Assembly (NCBI GenBank): GCA_009193035.1
Contig: SWDT01000068.1
Span: forward strand, 1-64,000
Reading direction: 5' to 3'
Source: Halicephalobus mephisto
Lineage: Eukaryota; Nematoda; Chromadorea; Rhabditida; Panagrolaimidae
Length of the DNA stretch: 64,000 nt
Each line of letters begins with the position of its first letter. The first letter of the stretch is position 1. Made by a program: the position numbers and the translations under genes. Under the pieces are notes generated by a model. The model worked only from the letters and a program-made list of their open reading frames with translations, was not told the DNA's origin and made no database searches. Positions 3,293-63,784 of this stretch are shown here, piece by piece.

Positions 3293-4160
3293 CAGATTTC
3301 GACAAAAGTCTTGGAAGTCTTTTATTTTTTAAATAATTTTTTTGTAAATAAATAATATTATAATTAGTGATTAGTGTTGCGTAGGTATTGTCAACTAATA
3401 TAAATACAACCAGTTATAACCTTTCTGCATAGTGCTCCTGGAGAGCAGTGCAGCTTTATTCATTTTTGGCACGTCAAAAGTCTTGGAAGTTTTCTTTCTA
3501 GTTTCTCTTTAGTGGTAAATGCTAGTCATTTAGTGTTTTTTTCTTTATTTAATAATTTTAGCTATGGTTTGCTACAAATACTATTCATTGGATTTTAAAA
3601 CCAAGGTTGTTCAAGCTGTTTATTCAGGAAGAAAAAAGCGCGATGTAGCTAGATGTTTCATGATTCCTGAAAACACTGTTTCTAGATGGGTGAAGCAATT
3701 TCATAATCAAGGAAGCTTAATTCCACGTGGGAAGTCTGGACGATCACGAAAAACTTCAAGATTTGCTGATCTTTGGATCAAAATGAGTGCTCGTGCAAAC
3801 CCTCGGTTAACAGCTTCATATATAAAACAACAAGTTTTTGGTCCAAATGATAGTGATACTGTTGGTATTAGAACTGTTCAACGTAGACTAAATGAAGTTC
3901 AGTTATTCGCACGCCAAGGTGCGAAAAAAGGATTAATATCTCTGAAGAATGCGAAGGATAGATTGAACTGGGTGCTTGAACATAGAACCTGGACTTTTGA
4001 TATGTGGAGCAGAGTCGTTTGGAGTGACGAGTCTACTTTTTTTTTCTTTGGTAATGAAGGAATAAACTGGATAAGAAGACCCAAAGGTGATAGATACAAA
4101 AAACAATATCAAATCCCAACTCTCAAACATGGAGGTGGAGTCGTTACTGTTTGAGCTTGT
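3293..4160 (+). mobile_element. Truncated Tc1/mariner transposon with IR/DR-type left end
   Basis: The left end begins CAG after a TA dinucleotide (3291-3292), as expected for Tc1/mariner insertions. The word AAAAGTCTTGGAAGT occurs near 3304 and again near 3475, about 171 bp apart. Two direct repeats inside one inverted-repeat end resemble the IR/DR layout of the Sleeping Beauty subgroup. The transposase ORF follows at 3564. The right end is missing: similarity stops near 4160, where unrelated sequence starts. Confidence 0.75.
3564..4154 (+). pseudogene. Tc1-type transposase, N-terminal two thirds only
   Basis: A 196-residue ORF. The N-terminal paired-like helix-turn-helix region (about residues 5-60, with NTVSRWVKQFHNQG) is followed by a second DNA-binding segment with the GRSRKTS linker. 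The catalytic domain starts at RVVWSDESTF, which holds the first catalytic aspartate. The ORF ends at HGGGVVTV followed by TGA, where relatives have Trp (HGGG..M.WG); the next codons read Ala-Cys, so TGG to TGA is likely. The second Asp and the final acidic residue are absent, so it cannot transpose. Full proteins of the family are about 340 residues. Confidence 0.85.
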
Positions 4161-41530: not shown

Positions 41531-41829
41531 GGTCAAACTCATAAGAAATGGATTTTTTGCATAAGAATGTTTAAGAATTGAGATATTGCGAAACCCATTT
41601 CTCAAACGAATTTGACCTCAATTTGAAATTATATATTGAACCTTCTCCGCGACCACGAAAAGAACAAATTGCGGATTTGAAAAGTCAATGTGATCCTCCG
41701 TGAGTGAACCTTTTTGTTTTTCGTGTTTGTTTTCTTCTTATTGACCGGCGAAAACGAGAATAAACCGATAGTTGGCTTTGGACGAAACCCATCGACTTGC
41801 GGTTGAGAGCCTTTATTTGTATAGAAAAT

Positions 41830-42115
41830 ACTGGATAGTGACTCATTGTTTCCCTCATATATAGCTTTTTAATTTATTTTATATTAGAAAATACTGGATA
41901 GTGACTGATTATTCATTTTCATATATCACTTTTTAATTTGTTTTACTTTTAAAAATATTGAATAGTGACTTATAGTTTATTTTCATATATCACTTTTTAA
42001 TTTATTTTACATTAGAAAATACTAGATAGTGATTGATTATTCATTTTCATATATCACTTTTTAATTTATTTTACATTAGAAAATACTGGATAGTGACTGA
42101 TAAAAACGACTAATT
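41830..42115. repeat. ~62-bp tandem repeats carrying GGATAGTGACT in one orientation
   Basis: Five units of AAAATACTGGATAGTGACTG followed by ATTATTCATTTTCATATATC and a CTTTTTAATTTATTTT tail. Here the 11-mer is not paired with its reverse complement, unlike the ladders. Confidence 0.85.
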
Positions 42116-42154
42116 ATTATATTTAGTGACTATTCTTGATGATTTATCTAAAAG

Positions 42155-42310
42155 TGAAGAATTGGATAGTGACTGAAATGATAATTCCTCAGTGAACTCA
42201 GTCACTATCTAACTTTGTACTTCCAATACGAATAGTCAGGATAGTGACTGATAATAACCATAAACCGTCGAATCCAGTCACTATCCCGACAAATTCTTAA
42301 ACGTGGATAG
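42155..42310. repeat. GATAGTGACT hairpin ladder A (upstream of GBA2)
   Basis: Two full units and a half unit: GGATAGTGACT, a 25-nt loop, AGTCACTATCT; a 27-nt linker; GGATAGTGACT, a 26-nt loop, AGTCACTATCC; then GGATAGTGATT. It ends about 165 bp before the GBA2 start codon. Confidence 0.88.
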
Positions 42311-42474
42311 TGATTTTCGAACAGATAGACTGCCTACTCTAATCTCTATTCTAATTTTGTCTGATTTCATTTTGACCGCATTTCCATTTTTTTTGTTAAT
42401 TCTGATTATGATTGCAAATCCCAAAATTCTTGTTTTTTTCGCGTTTTTATTTTTCTGGTTTTTATTGCATCAAA

Positions 42475-49706: not shown

Positions 49707-50370
49707 TGGATAGTGACTAAGATAAAAGTAAATTGCCAAAAGCAGTCACTATCCAAGTTTGATGTTCGTTATGGGACTTGTCAGGATAGTGACTAGAATG
49801 AATGATTAACTATCAAAAGCAGTCACTATCCAAGTATACCTTTGCTTAAGAAAATCCCCAGGATAGTGACTATTTTTGATGGTTAATTTCCCATAATAAT
49901 CACTATCCAAATTTGTCTTCTGAATCAAAATAATTAAGAGAGTGACTGCTTTTGAAGATTAACTATTTTTTCAGTCACTATTCAAATTTATTTTTTAGGT
50001 AGAAATAATCAGGATAGTGACTAGAAAATATTTACTTATTAAATACTCAGTCACTATCCAAGTTTATTTTTTATAAAAACCAATCAGGATAGTGACTAGA
50101 AAATATTTAATTATTAAATACTCAGTCACTATCCAAATTTACCCTTGCTTTAAAAAATCCTAAGATAGTGACTATTATAGGAAATTAACTATCAAAAGCA
50201 GTCACTATCCAAGTTTATTTTTTATAAAAACCAATCGGGATAGTGACTAGAAAATATTTAATTATTAAATACTCAGTCACTATCCAAATTTATTTTTTTA
50301 TAAAAACCAATCGGGATAGTGACTAGAAAATATTTAATTATTAAATACTCAGTCACTATCTAAGCAATTT
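49707..50370. repeat. GATAGTGACT hairpin ladder B
   Basis: Eight or nine consecutive units. Each has GGATAGTGACT (or a near variant), a 25-26-nt loop, then AGTCACTATCC; linkers between units are about 26-30 nt. Loops differ in sequence (for example 49861-49908 against 50012-50059), while the last three or four units repeat the loop AGAAAATATTTAATTATTAA almost exactly. Located between BOLA3 and lev-10. Confidence 0.95.
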
Positions 50371-52193
50371 CCATTAGGATTGGTTTTGTTACTAAAAATC
50401 ATTATTTCGAATACTTTTAAGACCTATTTTTTTCAATCCCAATGTCGAAACAAATTCAAAACTTTCACAACATCAAGAAAAATGTTTTCTCAAAGTTGAC
50501 CACAAAATGTAGAATATTTGATTGATTTTTGACAGAAAAATCTTCCATGCCGAAGATTTTTGAAGAAAAACGAACGAGTTAAGTCCAGAAATGAGACAAT
50601 GGAGTCCTGGACCCGGACGAATTATGGGTTTGTCGTCTCCGCCTCTCTCTCTCTCGCGGAGCTCAAATCGAAAAAGCTCATCTTGTCTTTTATAAGCCCG
50701 ACAACTGCCAGTTTTTCCTCTCAACCTGCCACAGGCTTTGTCACTTTAGGATCATAAAAGTATTTTACTAAGATATTTCTAAAGATTTTCTAAATCAAAA
50801 ATTGTCAAAATTAATTTTTTTTAATTTCAAAAAAATTCATGTTAAAATTTTTTGTGAAAATTAAATTTTCAAAATTGTCTGGAATTTTCTGAAATGTTTT
50901 GAAACCTTGGAAAATCTCGTGGAAGTTTTCTGGATCTTTCGTAATCTCCTGGGAATTTCGTGGAACATTCCAGAATTAAATGAAATTTTTTAGAATCTTC
51001 TGAAATTTTTGAAATTCAACAAAAAAATTAAAATTAAAATTTTAGAATTTTAGGATTTTCCAAAATTTAATGGAAATTTTAAAATTTTTTAATAATTTTA
51101 TAAAATTTAAAAAATCTTTAATAATTTTATAGAATTTTGTGATTTTTTGAAATTTTCTAAAATCTTAAATTTCATGATTTAAAAATTATTTCAAAATTTA
51201 AAAAGATTTTAAAATCAAAATTAAAAAATGTTTTAAAAATTCGTGTTGAGACTATTTCGTAATAGTGTGATTTTTAGATTTAAAAAAATTTGATTTCTTA
51301 AAAATGAATTATGTTTTTTTTCGAAAATGCCCGGCAGGGATTGATTTTATTTTATTTTTATTTTTTTTTTGCAGTAATCTCTCTAGGATTTATTTCCTTG
51401 TGTTCGACTTTTAGGTTGAGGAAGCAATAGCAATTGCCGCGTTATTTTCACGGATTAGAAAATCAAGATTATCAAAGATAGTGATTGAATTTCTCGTATA
51501 ATGTTTTTTATCACTATCCTTGGAAGCTATATTGGGAAAAGTAAAATTGAATAGTGACTATTTTTTACCATTAATAATTTTTAATCATTATTCAAATTTA
51601 CTTTCCAACAAAAATCTTCAGAATAGTGACTGGAATAAACTATTAATATTTTTATTCACTATCCTAATTTATTTTCCAACAAAAATCCCCAGGATAGTGA
51701 CTACTCTATACAATTAATCGGTCTTTTCAGTCACTATCCAACTTTTTCTAATAAAAATGATTCGGATAGTGACTAAATTTCCCAATAAATTACCACTTTC
51801 AGTCACTATCTATTTTATAAAATAAAGTTGGTAGTGAATTTGAACATTTAAAAAATGATTTTTATCAGTCACTATCCTCGAAATTTTGTCAACAATTTAA
51901 AATCGGATAGTGACTAAATCTCTGATGAATTCTCACTTTCAGTCACTATTCAAATTATCGAAATAAAGTTTATTTAAATTTTCAAAGTTAATTTAGAATT
52001 TTTTGTTTTTTTTATAATTTCGTGTTTTTTTTAAATTTTAATTTATTTTTTTTTTCAGGAAATGTAGCAAATTTTTTGTCGAAATTAAACTTTGACATCA
52101 CTTGGAATTTTTTCATTTTGCTCAAAAAAAACGGAATTTCTTCATTGTTCATATTTTTATTGAATTTTCAATTTTTATTCATTTTTGAAAAAA
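50371..52193. other. lev-10 upstream region
   Basis: 50500-50760 is richer in GC, with a CT-rich tract (CCTCTCTCTCTCTC) and TTTTATAAGCCC, a possible core promoter pointing toward lev-10. 50780-51300 is low-complexity TTTTAGAATTTT-type DNA. 51478-51955 is a hairpin ladder. No ORF is supported before the signal-peptide exon at 52194. An untranslated 5' exon of lev-10/eat-18 may lie here. Confidence 0.4.
51478..51955. repeat. GATAGTGACT hairpin ladder C
   Basis: Seven units with more divergence than ladder B. The loops of units 4 and 5 are 26 nt and that of unit 7 is 25 nt. Some units carry GAATA in the left arm and TATTC in the right arm (unit 2), keeping pairing; others have one mismatch or a G-U pair. 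Confidence 0.9.
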
Positions 52194-55100
52194 ATGAAAC
52201 TCAATCAATTTTGCCTAATTTTTTGGACTTTTTTTTTGTCCAAGTTTGCCAGCGGCTCTCTGACTCAACGAAGGGAATTGAAAGGAAATTCTGAATCCGG
52301 AGATGTTTTTTTCCGTAAGTTTTGGTTTTTATAAAATTAACTATGACTCGAACAAGGTTCTGAAGCAAAAAGTTTAAAATACAATTGAAATCTTTGAAAA
52401 AATAAAATTTCTAAATTTAGTCACTATTTTATTCGGAATGGTTATGGATAGTGACTAGGTCTCAGGAGAAATGAACCTTTTAGTCACTATTACATTTGAT
52501 TATTGATTTAGATAGTGACTAAGGAAAATTATTTATTGTTAAAAGCAGTCACTATCAAATTTTTATTGCAAAAATTAATTTTGGATAGTGACTGAAATAA
52601 TCACTTTTAGTCACTATTCTGGTGATTTTTATTATAAACATTAATTTTGGATAGTGACTGAAATAATCACTTTTAGTCACTATCCTGATGATTTCTATTA
52701 TAAACATTAATTTTGGATAGTGACTGAAAATAATCACTTTTAGTCACTATCCTGATGATTTTTATTATAAAAATTAATTTTGGATAGTGACTGAAATAAT
52801 CACTTTTAGTCACTATCCTGATGATTTCTATTATAAACATTAATTTTGGATAGTGACTGAAATAATTACTTCTAGTCACTATTCTGGTGATTTCTATTAT
52901 AAAAGTTAATTTTGGATAGTGACTGAAATAATCACTTTTAGTCACTATCCTGGTGATTTCTATTATAAACATTAATTTTGGATAGTGACTGAAAATAATA
53001 ATTAACCATGAAAAATAGTCACTATCCTCGGTATTTTTGGATTTAATTTTCTAAACTTTTCATTATTTATTATTTCTTTTAAAAATTACCCAATTATTTA
53101 ATACAAAAAAAGTTGCTCAATTATGGTTCCGACACGAAAAATGATTTTTTGCTTTTTCAAAATTATTTTTGAATTTTTATACATTTAATATATAAATAAA
53201 AATAAAACTGCTTTTTCAAAGTTTGTCAAAAAAATTAACTTTCAGCTTAGTTATTTGTTTGCACTTAAATAAGACCATTTTTCGTGTAGAAACTGAAACT
53301 GAACTACCGATATCGAGGTCTCCAGAAAAATCGACATCAAAATAAAAATAAAATCCGCAGTTTTCTCGCAAGCTTCTAGCCAATAGATCGGTATTTCTAT
53401 ATCTACCATTTTGTAAACTTCGAAATAAAAGTAAAATTTACAGTATTCTAGCAGATTACTTGGTATTTCTATATCTACAATTATGCAAATTCCGAAGTAA
53501 AAGTAAAATCCGCAATTCTCTTGCAGCATTCCGGCAGATCGGTCAACATCAAAATCATAGTTAAAGTAAAAAAAAAACACGCAGTTTGCTTGCAACATTC
53601 CAGCAGACTGGTTATTAAATTCTTATTTGAAAATTAATTTTAATTAAGGTTGTAATTTGCCCCTGGGCAAATTGAAAAACGAACAACTTGTTCAATCAAT
53701 TTTTTTAATAACAACCTTAGAAATTAACTTTGACAAAGTAAAAATAAATATTAATTCCCTTTTCACCAAAAAATAAATCATTTAAATATTTTAACAAAGG
53801 TTGTCGTTGAGAAAATTGACTGGGGTAAGTTGTTCATTTTTCAATTTATCCAGGGACAAATTACAACCCTAATTAAAATTAATTTTCAAATAAGAATTTA
53901 ATAACCAGTCTGCTGGAATGTTGCAGGCAAACTGCGTGTTTTTTTACTTTAACTATGATTTTGATGTCGACCGATCTGCCGGGATGCTGCAAGGGAATTG
54001 CGGATTTTACTTTTACTTCGGAATTTGCATAATTGTAGATATAGAAATACCAAGTAATCTGCTAGAATACTGTAAATTTTACTTTTATTTCGAAGTTTAC
54101 AAAATGGTAGATATAGAAATACCGATCTATTGGCTAGAAGCTTGCGAGCAAACTGCGGATTTGAGCTTCGATATTGACTGACATGGCAGAATATTGCGAG
54201 CAGATTACGGATTTTATACTAATTTCGAGATTTTTATAATTATAAACACAGAAATACATATCTGCTAGAATATTGTGAATTTTATACCAATTTCGGAATT
54301 TTTATAATTTAAACACAGAAATATCTATCTATCTGCTAGAATACTATGAATTTTATACTAATTTCGGAATTTTTATAATTTAAACACAGAAATGCCGATT
54401 GATTATCCTGAATTTTGCGAGCAAATTGCAGATTTTGATGTTGATTTCTTTACACACCTAGACACTGGTTGTTATCTTAAATTCCTTCGGTTACAGATAC
54501 TAAGAAATGGATACTTTTTGTCAGGAAATATTCTCTGAATACTCTACTAAACCTTTCACCTATTTTTCAGGAGAAACCTCATTTAAATTTGTTTGTTTTA
54601 CCGCTTGTCAAATTAGTACAGCGTCTGGCTTTAGCTAGGACAAGGAAACATTTTTCCATTCTCCATCAAGCAGGTAACTCATCTTGCGCTCGGGAGCTTC
54701 AAGTGTCCTCTTGCTGGAGAGCTCTCTGTTTTTCGATCGAATTTTAGGAATATTTTGTATGCACATTGGGCTCATAGCTAGGCATGTTCTCTGCTTTATT
54801 GACTAAATGGTGTCGGACTGTTGTTGATGTTATTCTCGATTTAGGATTCATTTTCGAAATTCACAGTTTTGGAAAGTGATTAAAATAGATAATTTATTGC
54901 TAAAAATAGTCACTATCCAGATTTGTTTCTGTAATAAAATCAGCAGGATAGTGACTGAAAAGACAATTACCTATATTGGACGCTGCCTAAATAGTTTTTG
55001 TTCACAAATAGTGTTGGATAGTGACTAGAGTAGACAATTAGTTTTTTCTATTGGACACTATCCATACGATATCTTCTACGAGGCCATTTTTGAATAGTGA

Positions 55101-58100
55101 CTAAAATAAATAAATTACTGTAAAGAATAGTTGCTATCTTGGCAATTTTTGTTTTAAAAATAAACTTTAATAAAAACTAAAATAGATACTTTATCATCAA
55201 AAGCAGTCACTATCCAAGTTTTGATTTTCTTTTCTCTGTTCTGAATGCTTGTTTTTTTTTACCTTTTCACAAAACTTGTTGACATCATTCATAAGTTTAT
55301 TCAAACTGTTTACCCACTTTTCTTTCAAATTTTTGACAGTTACTTGCTTCTTGGTAAAACCAAGACGAGATTATTAAAGTTTATTCAAATAGAATTTTGC
55401 AAGTTTTCAGAATTTTAGAAAAGCTTTTAGAGCTTTTTAAAATCTGGAAATTGATTCTAAAGTTTTCTGACTTTCATAAGAATTTCGAGAATTCAAAAAA
55501 GATCCCAAAACTTCCGGAAATTCGATAAAAACTTCTGAACCTTCTAAGATATGTGAAAAATTTTAGGAACTTTTAGAATCTTAAAGGGATTTTCAGAATC
55601 TCTTAGAAAATTTTGGAACTTTCTGAAATTAAGAAAAGGATTTTGGAAGTTCCCAGAAGTCCCTAAATGACTCGAAATTTTTCTAAAATCTTGTGAAAGA
55701 TTCTGGATTTCTTTAGAATCCAGAAGACCTCCTTGGAAGTTCTCAGAATCCAGTAGGAAGTTTCGGAACTAACATATGTTATCGAGGGTTCTAGAATATT
55801 CTAAAGCCCTCTAGAACCGATCTCCAGACCGTTTCCCGACACTTTCGTCTTTTACTTTTTTAATAATATAATCGTTGAATCACTATCAAGATTTATTTAT
55901 TTTTTTAGGAGTTTTGAAAAAGTAATTTTATTTTTAAACGATCTTTTCAAGACCACTTGAGGTTCAATTTTGGTTTTCTTTCATGAATGCAGAAGTTTCG
56001 GAGGATTCTTTTCGCATAAGAAAATGGAAAAAACCTCACGAGGAATCTTGAATGAATTTTTTAAAAACTTGAAGAATTTTAAAAAGTTACAATTTTTTGT
56101 TTTTTAGGATTTTTTATTTTTGGAAACTTCACAGTATAAAATTTAATTTTGATTTTTTACAGTAATTTTTATTTTGAAAAAAATTTTTAAAAAATTTAAA
56201 AAATCAGAAAATTTTAATTTTCAAAATAGTTTTGAAATTCCAAGTATACTTGTAAGTGTCCATATGTAGTTTTCTTTCCGGGACCAAAGTTTAGTATTGA
56301 TAAATTTTAAAAATAAAAACAACTTTTATGTGAATTTTTATTTAGAAAATTTTCTTTTTAGGACCAAAATTATTATTTTGAAATTTTTTAAATAAAAATA
56401 ATTTTTTCAAGAATATTCTTGTTAAAACCAAAATTATTATTTTAAAATTTTTTAAATAAAAATAATTTTTTCAAGAATATTCTTGTTAAAACCAAAATTA
56501 TTATTTTTCTAATTTTTAAAATTTCTTCAAAATCAAAATTTAAATTTTTAAAATTATTTAAATAAAAATAATTTTTTTCAAATTCTCTATTTAAAAAATT
56601 TTCTTGTTAAAACCAAAATTATTATTTTTCTAATTTTTAAAATTCAAATTTTTAAAACAAAAATAATTTTTGTATATTTTTATTAAAATTTTTTTTGAAA
56701 GATAGTGATTTTTTTAAATTTTAGGTTATATTCCCTCAAAATAGAACTAATTTTAAATTTTTATTTTTTATTTATTTTTTATTTTTTATTTTTTATTTTT
56801 TATTTTTATACATGGAATGCCATTGATTTTTTATTTTTCGAAATCCTTCCCACGGATATAAATTTTTATTTTGCATTTCCTGGTCTATGAGGCTTTATAC
56901 GTGGTTGAAATTTGCTTATTTTTGTAATTTTTAGAAATTTTTAAAATATGAAATTTAAAAATTAAAATAAATTTTTTAAGTTTTACCATGTCCGATCCTT
57001 TGGATTTCGATTGGCGAAATGGATCTCTTTCGCAGTCGAATCCGATGAAGATGAGATCTTTGGAAAGAGTTGTCGAGACCAGAATCGACATGTTGGAATT
57101 AGAAAAAGCCGAAGAAATCCAGGAAGATTGTCAGTTTTGTCGAAGCCTGGATTGCGATATTATTTTTGCACTTTTATTCACTTTTGTCATTGCTTGTTTG
57201 TTGGTCCTTATCATGGTCTTTTGGCTCAGAGGAGTCCTACAGTACGAAGAGTAAGATTTTCAGAGATTTAAAAACTAAATTTTAAAATTAATTAAAAAAT
57301 TAAAAATTCACAAATTTTATTAAAAATTTTCCTTTAAATTCAAAAATAATAATCTATTTTTAATTCAAATTTAAAAACAAAAATAAAAATAAATTTAAAA
57401 ATAAAAGTAAAAATTAAAATAAAAATAAATTTAAAAATTAAAACTGTTTAAAATTTAAAAATGAAATTTAAAATAAAAATAAATTTAAAAATAAAAGTAA
57501 AAATTTAAAATTAAAACTGTTTAAAATTGAAAAATTAAAATAAATTTAAAAATAAAATTTAAAATTTAAAAATTAAAATAAATTTTAAAATAAAATTTAA
57601 AATTTGCAATTTTTAAAAATTATATGAAATTTAAATCCAAAGAATCAGATCCTTGTTCAAGCCATTCCATTCTGTCTCTAATATCCTTCCCTTTACTCAC
57701 ATTTTCCTTTTTTTAGAATGCGATCACGTTTTTGACACCACCACCTCCAAAGGCACCTTCTCCTTTCCCTTTCCTCCCAGTTACTCTGGAAAAAACAAAA
57801 AGAAAATCAAATCTGACGAGTCTCTCTTTGAAAACATCCAAGTAAGTCCTTTTAAATAACAACTATGACCTGAACAAGGATACGGTAATGAAACAAGTAC
57901 TGTAACTCAACAAGGAAGTCAATCATTAAATAACAATTTTTTAAAATAGTATTTATTTTTTAGAATAATTATTTTTAAAGTTAATAATTATTTATTTAAA
58001 GAAATAATTATTTTTAAAATTAATAGTTATTTTTAAAATTGTTTTTTAAAATAATTATTTTTAAAGTTAATAATTATTTATTTAAAAAATAATTATTTTT

Positions 58101-61100: not shown

Positions 61101-63784
61101 AATCGCGAAACTGTTCATTACATCCAGAGCCCCGGGTTCCCCAACATGTACCCCCCTAACGCTACTTGCACATACATCTTGGATGGTCTTCAAGGAGATC
61201 AGAATCTCGAAAAAGTCGTTCTGGAATTTGAGACTTTAGCAGTTTATTCCAGAAAGAAAGCCACAAGTGCCTCAGGCGATGACAACGAATGTGACGAAGC
61301 CTACGTCGGAATCGCCACGACCGAAGAATCGGTCAAATCCGTCTTAGCTTCGAACGAGGAGAGTTCGTACGACGTGACTCTCTGTGACATACTCAAGCCC
61401 GGGGCAGACCAGATGGGTCCCTATTCGAGTTCAGGACCGAGGATGGTCCTGGTCTTCGGAAGTTGGGACATGGAATTGGCCCCTCTCGCGGCTCAGCCTC
61501 CATTCGGGTTCAGAGCCAAAGTGGAGTTCAAAACTGGTGGGTTTAGTCACTATCTTTCTCGAGAAAACATCATCAAGATAGTAAATAAAAAAACTCCAAT
61601 CTGATAAAGTAACAACAATACAAAAAAGCAAATTTAAAAATATTTTTTTTCCAATTTTACATCGTATTTTAAAAGATGAAAAACTTTTCGATTAGTATGT
61701 AAAATCATGTATAATTTTCATCCAGAACTAAAGAAACTTTTTGTTTGGTTTTAAATGGAAAATGTATGAAGATATTTTTGTGTGAAAAGTTATTAATTTT
61801 TATTTTTTAAATTTCTTATCGGTTGTTAAAATAGAAAACAGAAAGTTTTATAGTAATCTTCACCAGAACAATAAGGATATAATTCATATATTTACTCTCA
61901 TCCAAGACAACTGAAAATCTCATTCTAGCTTTACAGTATCCCAGATTCCCTGATATTCAGGCTATCTCTTCGGGTCTTTTTTAATTTAGTTTCTGTTTCA
62001 ACGGTATTCTAATAATAGATAGGATTATATCAATTAAAAACTAACTGTTAAGATAAAAACATGATTATAGTAATCTTCACCAGAACAATAAGGATATAAT
62101 TCATGTATTTACTCTCATCTAAGACAACTGAAAATCTCATTCAAGCTTTACAGTATCCCACATTCCCTGATATTCAGGCTATCTCTTCGGATCTTTTTTA
62201 ATTTAGTTTCTGTTTCAACATACATGAATCAGAAATTAGTTAATTTTAAGTTTGGAAATATTAATTTAATTTATGTATTTGATTTCAGATTTCGGAATCC
62301 CCGGAGAAGCCGTCGGAGACTCCAATAAATGTTTCTTCAGATTCCGACAACGACGAGGGTCCTTCAACAGTCCCCGTTATCCAGCTAATGTAAGTAATTT
62401 TTTTATTAAAAAAACTAAATTTTCAACTTTGATCTCAACACGAAAATTAATTTTTTAAAATTATTTTTATTTTTAAATAATTTTTAAATTTATTTTTATG
62501 TAAATAAACGAAGACATGAAAGTTGGTAAATATAAAAGTAATTTTAAAAAACTAGGAGAATAATTTTAAAAAATGTTTTTCTTGTCAGGACCAAAGTCAA
62601 GCAACTGGACTTACTTTTTTGGCAGAATTCTATCATGACCTTTTTAGTACCCTCTGGACACCAACTGCACTTACTTCATCCAAGGCCAGCCGGGAGACCA
62701 GATTATTCTTTATTTTGAACAATTTGCCTTGTTCGAAGAAAAATCCACAGATGAATGCAATGATTGGCTCGAGATTTACGACATAATCAAGGACGATAAA
62801 GAAGAAGAACAAGCAGTATTGCAAGCCAAACATTGCTGGACGATATTCCCCGGACCGACCGTCAGTACTTTTGGGTCTCATGAAATGAAGGTTGTCTTCA
62901 GCAGTGACTCATTCGGGACTGCCAACGGATTCAAGGCTTTGTATGAAATCAGAAGATCGTTCAAAGAAGATGTCCCAAGCAAAGGTTCGTTTTTACATGC
63001 AAATTTCCAATTTTAATATGAATTTTTATATGGAATTCAAAACAACTAATAAGACGTATTTATTTTTTAATTTTCTATATGAAGCCAAAAAGTCGATATA
63101 TGAAATCCTTTTTAATGAATTTATATATGGAATTTTGTTTCTGAATGAAATCCACATATGGAATTTTGTTTTTACTTGAAAGTTATATATGGATATTAAT
63201 TTTAGCTGAGCATTCTGATTCTCGACATTGCGGCCACCTCATCGAACCTAATCCCATGAAGACTTCGGGATATTTCTACTCCCCTGGTTATCCGGTCAAG
63301 TACAGCAAGGACCTCATTTGTGACTGGCTGATCCGAGCGAGACCAGACCACCAGATCCTTCTCAAACTCGTAGCTATGGATGTCGAAGGCGAAATCACCG
63401 ACACCAAAGTCAACTGCAAAGACGCCATCATCAGAATCCACATTGACTACGAGAATAGGACTGCTGACAAGAACATTTGCGGAACGAATCCAGAAGTCAT
63501 GAAACCTATAATTTCCTTAAATGAGACAATCAGGATCAGTTTCATGACGTCACCAGAAAAAGTAAACGGGTTACAGGGATTCAACTTCAGCTGGACCGAA
63601 GTCAAACTTGTTCAACGTGGGTTTATGTGGAATTTTGTATGTGAAAGTTGATTTTCAGAGGATTCTGAATGTTCTGGAGAGGACAAGTATCTCTGTAGTT
63701 ACACTAGATTGTGCATCCACAGTCGGCTGAAATGTGATGGAGATCAGAATTGCGGAGACAACGACGACACGGATGAAGCTCACT
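52194..63784 (+). CDS. lev-10: LEV-10: five CUB domains plus LDLa, 3' end outside the window
   Basis: Exons 52194-52314, 57717-57841, 58497-58579, 58624-58740, 58794-58891, 58946-59012, 60204-60252, 60294-60388, 60824-61536, 62289-62389, 62648-62984, 63206-63616, 63659-63784; every phase fits, ~814 residues so far. The start MKLNQFCLIFWTFFLSKFAS is a signal peptide. CUB1 runs from CDHVFDTT to SRYCGTV; CUB2 from LCSFVIDAG (SPTYPGTYPANFHCDY) to CGLQQN; CUB3 from ECDIRVQ (SPGFPNMYPPNATCTY); CUB4 from KCFFRFRQRRGSFNSPRYPA; CUB5 from HCGHLIE (SPGYPVKYSKDLICDW). The LDLa module is C...LCSYTRLC...LKCDGDQNCGDNDDTDEAHC. This order is that of nematode LEV-10, which clusters levamisole-type acetylcholine receptors at neuromuscular junctions. 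The transmembrane and cytosolic part must lie beyond 64000. Intron 1 (5.4 kb) holds the eat-18-like gene and many repeats. Confidence 0.92.
52437..53030. repeat. GATAGTGACT hairpin ladder D (lev-10 intron 1)
   Basis: About ten units. The first two and the last have 25-26-nt loops. The middle seven are a recent tandem expansion with a shorter, ~14-16-nt loop (GAAATAATCACTTTT) and a 29-nt linker (TGGTGATTTTTATTATAAAC plus ATTAATTTT). The expansion creates long chance ORFs on the minus strand with a SHYPKLMFI repeat. Confidence 0.95.
53335..54165. mobile_element. Foldback element with ~300-350-bp inverted arms
   Basis: The left arm (~53335-53690) and right arm (~53832-54165) are reverse complements over nearly their full length, about 95 percent by eye, separated by ~140 bp. 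Arms contain the CCGCAGTTTTCTCGC and CATTCCGGCAGATCGGT words of the dystrophin-intron minisatellite. The two ORFs inside are mirror images of one another and are therefore not genes. More diverged single units follow at 54190-54440. Confidence 0.85.
54868..55215. repeat. GATAGTGACT hairpin ladder E (lev-10 intron 1)
   Basis: Four to five old units, several with 26-nt loops (for example 54872-54919 and 55015-55062), with substitutions in the arms. A last half unit GCAGTCACTATCC ends at ~55215. Confidence 0.85.
55560..55850 (+). repeat. Left arm of a 3.2-kb-spaced inverted repeat
   Basis: Reverse complement of ~59055-59400, including TTCTAGAATATTCTAAAGCC, GAACTAACATATGTTATCGA and the AGACCTCCTTGGAAGTTC words. 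It lies in lev-10 intron 1. Confidence 0.85.
56300..56700. repeat. Four diverged units before the eat-18-like gene
   Basis: Iterates ACCAAAATTATTATTTT and AAATAAAAATAATTTTTTCAAGAATATTCTTGTTAAA with ~75-bp spacing. No coding content. Confidence 0.75.
56988..57254 (+). CDS. eat-18: EAT-18-like small single-pass membrane protein nested in lev-10 intron 1
   Basis: Single-exon ORF of 88 residues (67 if the inner ATG at 57051 is used; the C. elegans protein is about 71). It has an acidic/polar N-terminal part with ERVVETRIDMLELEKAEEI, a CQFCRSLDC cluster, one strong membrane segment (IIFALLFTFVIACLLVLIMV) and a short tail GVLQYEE. In C. elegans eat-18 shares its locus with lev-10 (recalled), and it is an auxiliary subunit of the pharyngeal EAT-2 nicotinic receptor. 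The GTAAG after the last Glu could act as a donor, but joining it to the CUB1 exon gives an early stop, so this is a separate product. An acceptor-like TTTTTTAAG lies 9 bp before the ATG, fitting a spliced 5' UTR exon. Named mainly from position, size and topology. Confidence 0.75.
   Translation: MSDPLDFDWRNGSLSQSNPMKMRSLERVVETRIDMLELEKAEEIQEDCQFCRSLDCDIIFALLFTFVIACLLVLIMVFWLRGVLQYEE
57960..58490. repeat. Tandem ~60-bp AT repeat in lev-10 intron 2
   Basis: About eight units of TAATTATTTTTAAAGTTAATAATTATTTATTTAAAAAA, alternating with a shorter TTTTTAGTTAATAATTATTT form. The array runs into the acceptor of exon 3. Confidence 0.88.
59055..59400 (-). repeat. Right arm of the 3.2-kb-spaced inverted repeat
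   Basis: Partner of 55560-55850, with an extra internal duplication (two blocks of GGGAACTTCCAAGGAGGTCC). It lies in the intron between exons 6 and 7 of lev-10. Confidence 0.85.
59805..60165. repeat. Three diverged ~130-bp units in a lev-10 intron
   Basis: Each unit has TTTCGTGTTAGGAGTCAGGT (or close) then CTTTCACGACGTCTTAAATA and TTTATAAAAT. Copies start near 59805, 59945 and 60110; the third is the most diverged. Confidence 0.8.
60395..60670. repeat. 15-bp repeat AATATTTAAATTTAG
   Basis: About sixteen tandem units with single-base variants (AATGTTTGAATTTAGA and similar) in the lev-10 intron before exon 9. Confidence 0.9.
61852..62220. repeat. Two ~150-bp direct copies in lev-10 intron 9
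   Basis: 61852-62001 and ~62072-62220 are almost identical (AGTAATCTTCACCAGAACAATAAGG ... AATTTAGTTTCTGTTTCAAC). They are more complex in sequence than the other intron repeats and may be two copies of a short mobile element. Confidence 0.85.

What the first reader, a model, noticed from the sequence alone, without database searches (positions are those of the whole stretch)
49707..55215. Alternating 11-mer hairpin ladders with a constant 25-26-nt loop
In four clusters here (B-E; a fifth, A, at 42155-42310), GGATAGTGACT alternates with its reverse complement AGTCACTATCC. Nearly every countable unit outside the middle of ladder D encloses exactly 25 or 26 nt. Examples: 49861-49908, 50012-50059, units 4 and 5 of ladder C, the first two and last units of D, and 54872-54919 and 55015-55062 in E. 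Loop sequences differ between units and clusters, while total length (11+26+11) holds. Linkers are 24-30 nt, so the motif recurs about every 38 bp with alternating direction. Length kept while sequence varies suggests either a constraint (RNA hairpin of fixed size, or a protein reading paired sites) or descent from one longer palindrome. Some loops keep GCTTTTGA on the left or TCAAAAGC on the right, which favours an ancestral longer palindrome. I know of no described nematode repeat with this layout.
Basis: partly seen in the sequence, partly recalled or inferred. Interest (0 to 1): 0.85.

Follow-up and report, generated by a model that had tools for sequence, protein, structure and literature searches.

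The report
Paired 11-letter boxes in worm satellites
A roundworm genome carries thousands of copies of one 11-letter DNA word, often set as mirror-image pairs at preferred distances inside otherwise differing repeats, which looks more like a docking site for a DNA-binding protein than an RNA hairpin, though no function has been shown.

Summary
The window has 59 copies of GGATAGTGACT with at most one mismatch, 0.46 expected. Of its 28 inverted pairs, 20 enclose 25-26 nt, 6 (middle of D) 15-16, and 2 enclose 22. The word is genome-wide: 3,210 exact copies in 59.9 Mb against 10 for the reversed word. Gap lengths genome-wide favour about 14-16 and 26 nt, and 27 shows no excess over its control, though 4 of 52 sampled pairs are 27. 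The longer GCTTTTGA arm has only 5 copies. Inside arrays the box varies about six-fold less than spacer (0.026 vs 0.159). Arms do not covary, which speaks against a hairpin and for a duplex-DNA site read in inverted pairs. A passive, decayed 48-bp palindrome is the main rival. The host is a panagrolaimid-like nematode. Abundant species-specific short motifs in scattered satellites are a described feature of holocentric nematodes (PMC3634726); new here are the inverted pairs, their preferred spacings and the measured box conservation. The bound protein and function are unknown.

The parts
41822..42101 (+). Cluster A, first part: head-to-tail 64-bp array, box in one direction
42088..42351 (.). 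Cluster A ladder: inverted pairs with gaps 26 (42088; right arm 2 mismatches), 25 (42164) and 26 (42239); a further one at 42305 has a 3-mismatch arm
49708..50361 (.). Ladder B: nine inverted pairs, gaps 25/26, about 76-bp period; box columns vary 0.02-0.03, spacer 0.27-0.28
51476..51951 (.). Ladder C: five inverted pairs with arms of at most 2 mismatches, gaps 22, 22, 26, 26, 25
52446..53027 (.). Ladder D: pairs of 25 and 26, then six of 15-16 in a 66-bp array, then 26
54871..55215 (.). Ladder E: degraded, two inverted pairs of 26 plus single boxes
50012..50059 (.). Type unit: GGATAGTGACT, 26 nt, AGTCACTATCC (48 bp)
61545..61555 (-). Lone box with one mismatch, outside the ladders

Best explanation
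GGATAGTG(A/T)CTR is a short conserved box embedded in many differing short satellite arrays of a panagrolaimid-like nematode. It is probably recognised as double-stranded DNA by a sequence-specific protein that contacts two inverted boxes at once (a dimer, or two DNA-binding units). The two favoured spacings (about 14-16 and 26 bp, about one helical turn apart) would put the two sites in the same rotational relation. Arrays grow by tandem duplication; spacers drift; boxes and spacing are kept. The likely role is chromosome organisation, a platform of clustered sites as in holocentromere boxes or pairing-centre motifs, or a box that favours amplification of its own array. Shown: copy number, box conservation in sampled arrays, favoured spacings, lack of arm covariation, uneven density. 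Inferred: a protein, dimeric reading, helical phasing. Guess: the chromosome role.
For: 3,210 exact copies vs 10 for the reversed word; 7,275 with at most 1 mismatch vs 363; GGATAGTGTCT 1,057 vs 9. Box columns not used for cutting vary 0.026 (143 columns) vs 0.159 in spacer (683 columns), nominal p 7e-17; in 8 of 13 array tests no other 11-column window is as conserved. Gaps: ATAGTGACT-N2..17-AGTCACTAT 139 pairs, control 1; the 50 listed all have 11-17 nt, 37 of 50 have 14-16. Gap 26: 217/221 vs control 45/42; 24-25 together 147 vs 43; 17-23 together 124 vs 17; 27: 122 vs 224. In sampled loci, duplicates collapsed within each locus, 19 of 52 inverted pairs are 26. The first inner base is A or G in 51 of 54 distinct contexts. 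Density is uneven over ten contigs I picked: 5 above expectation (C25 15 vs 1.1), 1 below (C55 1 vs 10.7), 4 not different at 0.05.
Against: No bound protein, transcript or chromatin data. 26-nt loops of different loci are weakly alike, so common descent explains part of the fixed length. In 5 of 13 array tests some spacer windows are as conserved as the box (winD+ 11 of 24, winC+ 5 of 30, L052+ 17 of 28, L050- 2 of 47, L053+ 39 of 49); + and - tests of an array share data, and arrays were picked because they hold exact boxes. Gaps of 17-25 nt are also populated and 27 occurs in 4 of 52 sampled pairs, so spacing is preferred, not fixed. Gap counts include tandem duplicates, use cores of different length, and the reversed control at 27 is itself high. 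Four of 52 sampled pairs have gap 6, but none of the 50 listed exact-core pairs is below 11. Everted linkers are also not random: 44 of 70 are 22-29 nt. Isolated short motifs in nematodes often are the conserved part of transposons (PMC3634726).
Confidence: 0.47

Rival explanations
1. Passive satellite: the ladders descend from one ancient 48-bp imperfect palindrome unit that was copied and shuffled round the genome; loops shrank by deletion, and the box looks conserved through sampling or local homogenisation.
For: 26-nt loops of different loci share a weak positional consensus (11.3 vs 9.9 of 26, most alike pair 19 of 26); lengths 24-25 are populated while 27 shows no genome-wide excess, as deletion bias from 26 would give; tandem duplication is obvious; short loops fall to 15 clusters at a laxer threshold.
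Against: Box columns stay about 6-fold less variable than spacer inside the same arrays; a second favoured length at 14-16 with 32 loop clusters among 50 at the stricter threshold; the box also sits in head-to-tail arrays of 64 and 147 bp (in the 64-bp one box and spacer differ little, 0.068 vs 0.090).
Confidence: 0.32
2. Transposase site: the box is the terminal or subterminal recognition site of a non-autonomous DNA transposon, kept because mobilisable copies need it.
For: Inverted arrangement and dispersal over many contigs; isolated frequent motifs of nematodes often belong to transposons (PMC3634726); boxes at satellite junctions were proposed to act in a transposition-like way in Meloidogyne (PMC3694981, passages).
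Against: No excess of target-site duplications at 87 pairs (2-8 nt, never above permuted level); units of 28-48 bp are very small; boxes also occur head to tail and singly.
Confidence: 0.14
3. RNA hairpin or DNA cruciform of fixed size, selected for base pairing.
For: Six 48-nt units tested fold far better than shuffles (z -3.7 to -6.9), as any inverted 11-mer must; slight loop self-complementarity (P below 0.05 in 3 of 6 settings).
Against: Arms change independently: 97 one-arm changes, 9 double vs 6.6 expected; 22 of 87 pairs perfectly complementary and all of those are consensus; loop halves not specially alike; the only Rfam match in the window at gathering threshold is a tRNA.
Confidence: 0.05

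Closest known systems
Frequent short motifs in scattered satellites of holocentric nematodes (Subirana and Messeguer 2013, PMC3634726; parts 1-2 of 4 read)
   Same: A 12-16-base word with hundreds to thousands of copies, own to each species, inside satellites, alone, or both
   Different: Their table lists single words (one, TGGCANNNTGCCA, is itself an inverted pair); no panagrolaimid is in the study; inverted pairs with favoured gaps are not described in the parts read
Meloidogyne CenH3-associated tandem repeats with a conserved 19-bp box (Despot-Slade 2021; seen only as described in PMC9673304, passages)
   Same: Short arrays of several divergent repeat families sharing one short conserved box, in a related nematode group (relation recalled)
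   Different: Box length; here inverted pairs with favoured spacings; CenH3 association untested; box sequences not compared
Meloidogyne CENP-B box-like satellites (PMC3694981, PMC9673304; passages)
   Same: Box kept while satellites diverge to 32-64% identity
   Different: 17-bp CENP-B-like box; no inverted pairs described in the passages seen
C. elegans pairing centres bound by HIM-8/ZIM zinc-finger proteins (PMC9071541, PMC8455136; passages)
   Same: 12-base motifs in regionally enriched copies
   Different: Enriched at one terminal segment per chromosome; HIM-8/ZIM homologues reported in many Clade V genomes, not shown for panagrolaimids; chromosome placement here unknown

Membership tests
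Frequent short motif of holocentric nematodes | Short word in about a thousand or more copies, in satellites and alone | tested here: met
   3,210 exact copies; arrays and single sites
Frequent short motif of holocentric nematodes | Own to the species | not tested
   No other nematode genome was searched
Frequent short motif of holocentric nematodes | Holocentric chromosomes | not testable with these tools
   Needs cytology
Meloidogyne-type box satellites | One box conserved across divergent repeat arrays | tested here: met
Meloidogyne-type box satellites | Association with CenH3 chromatin | not testable with these tools
   Needs ChIP
Meloidogyne-type box satellites | The 19-bp box sequence itself | not tested
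   Source paper not held
Pairing-centre motif | Enrichment at one end of a chromosome | tested here: inconclusive
   Density uneven among ten picked contigs, but no TTAGGC x5 in the assembly (0 hits)
Pairing-centre motif | HIM-8/ZIM family protein encoded | not tested
   No query at hand; literature passage only
MITE / DNA transposon ends | Target-site duplications flanking the inverted pair | tested here: not met
   87 pairs
Structured RNA hairpin | Compensatory changes in the arms | tested here: not met
   87 pairs

The most novel reading that the evidence does not exclude
The box is the DNA half of a chromosome-wide platform (holocentromere or meiotic pairing) in panagrolaimid nematodes: a dimeric protein binds inverted boxes about two and a half or three and a half helical turns apart, and selection keeps box and spacing while the satellites around them turn over.
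Probability: 0.18. Interest if true: 0.85.

Novelty: new variant of a known kind. Interest (0 to 1): 0.45.

Why it matters
Holocentric nematodes are known to carry species-specific frequent short motifs in scattered satellites (PMC3634726), whose purpose is open. This one comes with a measurable rule: inverted pairs, two favoured spacings, box kept while spacers drift. That predicts a two-site DNA-binding protein, and the box can serve directly as bait and as a FISH probe.

Tried and rejected
Rejected: RNA hairpin; transposon ends with target duplications; GCTTTTGA arm as a general feature; a known RNA family (only a tRNA in the window). Inconclusive: telomere proximity; species. Both protein trees put the window outside the sampled Rhabditina, with forks of 94/86 and 93/91, below the tool's star level; full-length proteins were kept out by the search's length limits; the exon-joined TIM23 points to Panagrolaimidae. 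An Auanema idea was dropped: A. melissensis has 37.1% GC (passages). Size and GC resemble Halicephalobus mephisto (61.4 Mb, 32.1% GC, 880 scaffolds; PMC6872716 passages), but the assembly figures differ and identity was not shown. A search for '59.9 Mb' nematode assemblies gave 2 papers whose listed titles are on other subjects. Rows dropped before counts: one search collapsed 77 pairs to 52 (within each locus only, so the inverted copies on C1 count twice); 127 contexts to 54; 50 loops to 32 clusters (15 at a laxer threshold); one search kept 32 of 50 loops with R..Y ends (not used in the argument). One search had one of 50 loops typed one base out of register (length unaffected); one search repeats it from the full strings with the same lengths and 32 clusters. 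The same loop entered, whose short-loop rows were not repeated. An earlier conservation test that included the cutting motif gave 0.025 vs 0.117 over 10 arrays.
Full report
What is there. The window (G000:C316, 64 kb of a 59.9 Mb assembly in 331 contigs) holds 59 sites of GGATAGTGACT with at most one mismatch, against a shuffle mean of 0.46, 41 of them exact. All but one lie in clusters A (here taken from 41822) to E. Of 28 inverted pairs with arms of at most two mismatches and gap of at most 30, 20 enclose 25 or 26 nt, 6 enclose 15-16 (middle of D) and 2 enclose 22. Cluster A begins with a head-to-tail 64-bp array with the box in one direction. Four of nine B units and the six middle D units have near-identical loops, so they are not independent.

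Genome-wide. The exact word occurs 3,210 times, its reversal 10 times; with up to one mismatch 7,275 against 363. One variant, GGATAGTGTCT, has 1,057 copies, control 9. The arm extended to GCTTTTGA has 5 copies, 3 of them here, so the unit is the 11-mer. Its next inner base is A or G in 51 of 54 distinct contexts; outer flanks carry at most 0.23 bits per position. Of 18 stretches taken without regard to the word (176 kb, by contig number), 2 held it exactly. Density differs by contig: among ten contigs that I picked, for the subset CGGATAGTGACTR (100 of 275 places listed), five are above expectation (C25 15 vs 1.1, C103 10 vs 1.1, C62 9 vs 0.8, C53 6 vs 0.4, which is one array, C85 5 vs 0.9), C55 is below (1 vs 10.7, its length a lower bound), four do not differ at 0.05. 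Tandem copies were not removed.

Gap lengths. Exact 9-base cores with gaps of 2-17 nt: 139 pairs, control 1; the 50 listed have lengths 11:3, 12:3, 13:2, 14:13, 15:14, 16:10, 17:5, in 32 sequence clusters at 75% similarity and 15 at 65%. Gaps 17-23 (6-base cores): 124, control 17. Gaps 24-25: 147, control 43. Gap 26: 217/221, control 45/42. Gap 27: 122, control 224, so no excess, though that control is itself high. These searches use cores of different length, so heights are not strictly comparable. In sampled loci, collapsed within each locus, the 52 inverted pairs have gaps 26 (19), 25 (5), 16 (5), 27 (4), 6 (4), 24 (3), 22 (3), 15 (2), and 7, 20, 23, 40, 50, 102 and 142 once each. Everted linkers run from 13 to 71 nt, 44 of 70 between 22 and 29 (not collapsed). 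The picture is two favoured lengths about one helical turn apart, with lengths between them less common and a steep drop after 26.

Constraint. In 13 tests on seven arrays, columns of the box not used to cut the units vary 0.026 on average, spacer columns 0.159 (nominal p 7e-17). In 8 of 13 no other 11-column window is as conserved; in 5 of 13 some are (winD+ 11 of 24, winC+ 5 of 30, L052+ 17 of 28, L050- 2 of 47, L053+ 39 of 49). The two tests of one array share data, and the arrays were picked for holding exact boxes. Arms do not covary: over 87 inverted pairs 97 positions changed on one arm, 9 on both (6 complementary), 6.6 expected; 22 pairs are perfectly complementary and all 22 are consensus. 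Loops of 26 nt from different loci are more alike than shuffles (11.3 vs 9.9 identical of 26 with ends kept; most alike pair 19 of 26), but the halves of one loop are not more alike than halves of different loops (4.47 vs 4.68 of 13); self-complementary loop positions exceed shuffles at P below 0.05 in 3 of 6 settings. So there is a weak extended half-site or a common ancestor, and little sign of pairing within a unit. Six units fold better than shuffles, which the inverted arms alone ensure. There is no excess of target-site duplications at 87 pairs.

Whose genome. A joined TIM23 from the window matches Panagrolaimus davidi at 72% and Panagrellus redivivus at 70%, the best-scoring named hits (an unnamed 143-residue fragment reaches 92%). 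Two protein trees place the window outside the sampled Rhabditina with moderate support. GC (31.8% in the sample) and size resemble Halicephalobus mephisto (passages). A panagrolaimid-like nematode is the fair statement.

Kind and mechanism. Subirana and Messeguer report that the holocentric nematodes they studied carry frequent short motifs, own to each species, with hundreds to thousands of copies in scattered satellites or alone, and suggest that satellites help build kinetochores; isolated motifs often belong to transposons (PMC3634726, parts 1-2 of 4 read). The present box fits that kind in copy number and in being both in arrays and alone. Boxes kept across divergent satellites are also described in Meloidogyne (PMC9673304, PMC3694981, passages), and C. 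elegans pairing centres use 12-base motifs bound by zinc-finger proteins (PMC9071541, passages) whose homologues were reported in many Clade V genomes (PMC8455136, passages). What I did not find described is the inverted pair with favoured spacings. I take reading by a dimeric DNA-binding protein as most likely (0.47), passive decay of an ancient palindrome next (0.32).

Is it in print. A search for the word, its variant and their complements gave 14 papers; one is a C. elegans paper in which the letters are part of an oligonucleotide, the other 13 I saw as listings with other subjects. A search on panagrolaimid and holocentric satellites showed 12 of 129 papers; of these I opened PMC3634726, whose main text names neither Panagrellus nor Halicephalobus. 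Only open-licence papers were searched.

Noticed in passing
window 53351-54162: Large foldback between ladders D and E: arms of 224 nt (98% complementary) and 119 nt (95%).
   Followed up: no
L031-L048 and window: Other short words are also over-represented and dispersed: TTCATATATGA (27 copies in 6 of 18 stretches), AATTCGTGTCG (11 in 8 of 18), ATTACTGTAAT (6 in 5 of 18), reversed controls 0. The genome may hold several box families.
   Followed up: partly
G000 contigs C1-C25: The variant GGATAGTGTCT is unevenly spread: 25 of the first 100 listed places (of 1,057) lie on C24, 1 on C9, and the window has none.
   Followed up: no
L001, L023, L027, L044, L049, L056: Stretches between or beside boxes carry forms of ATTGGAGCTGT / AACAGCTCCAAT (seen by eye).
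   Followed up: no
window 3534-4154: Open frame that looks like a Tc1/mariner-type transposase (resemblance recalled, not searched).
   Followed up: no
whole genome G000: No run of five TTAGGC in the assembly: chromosome ends are not assembled or differ.
   Followed up: no
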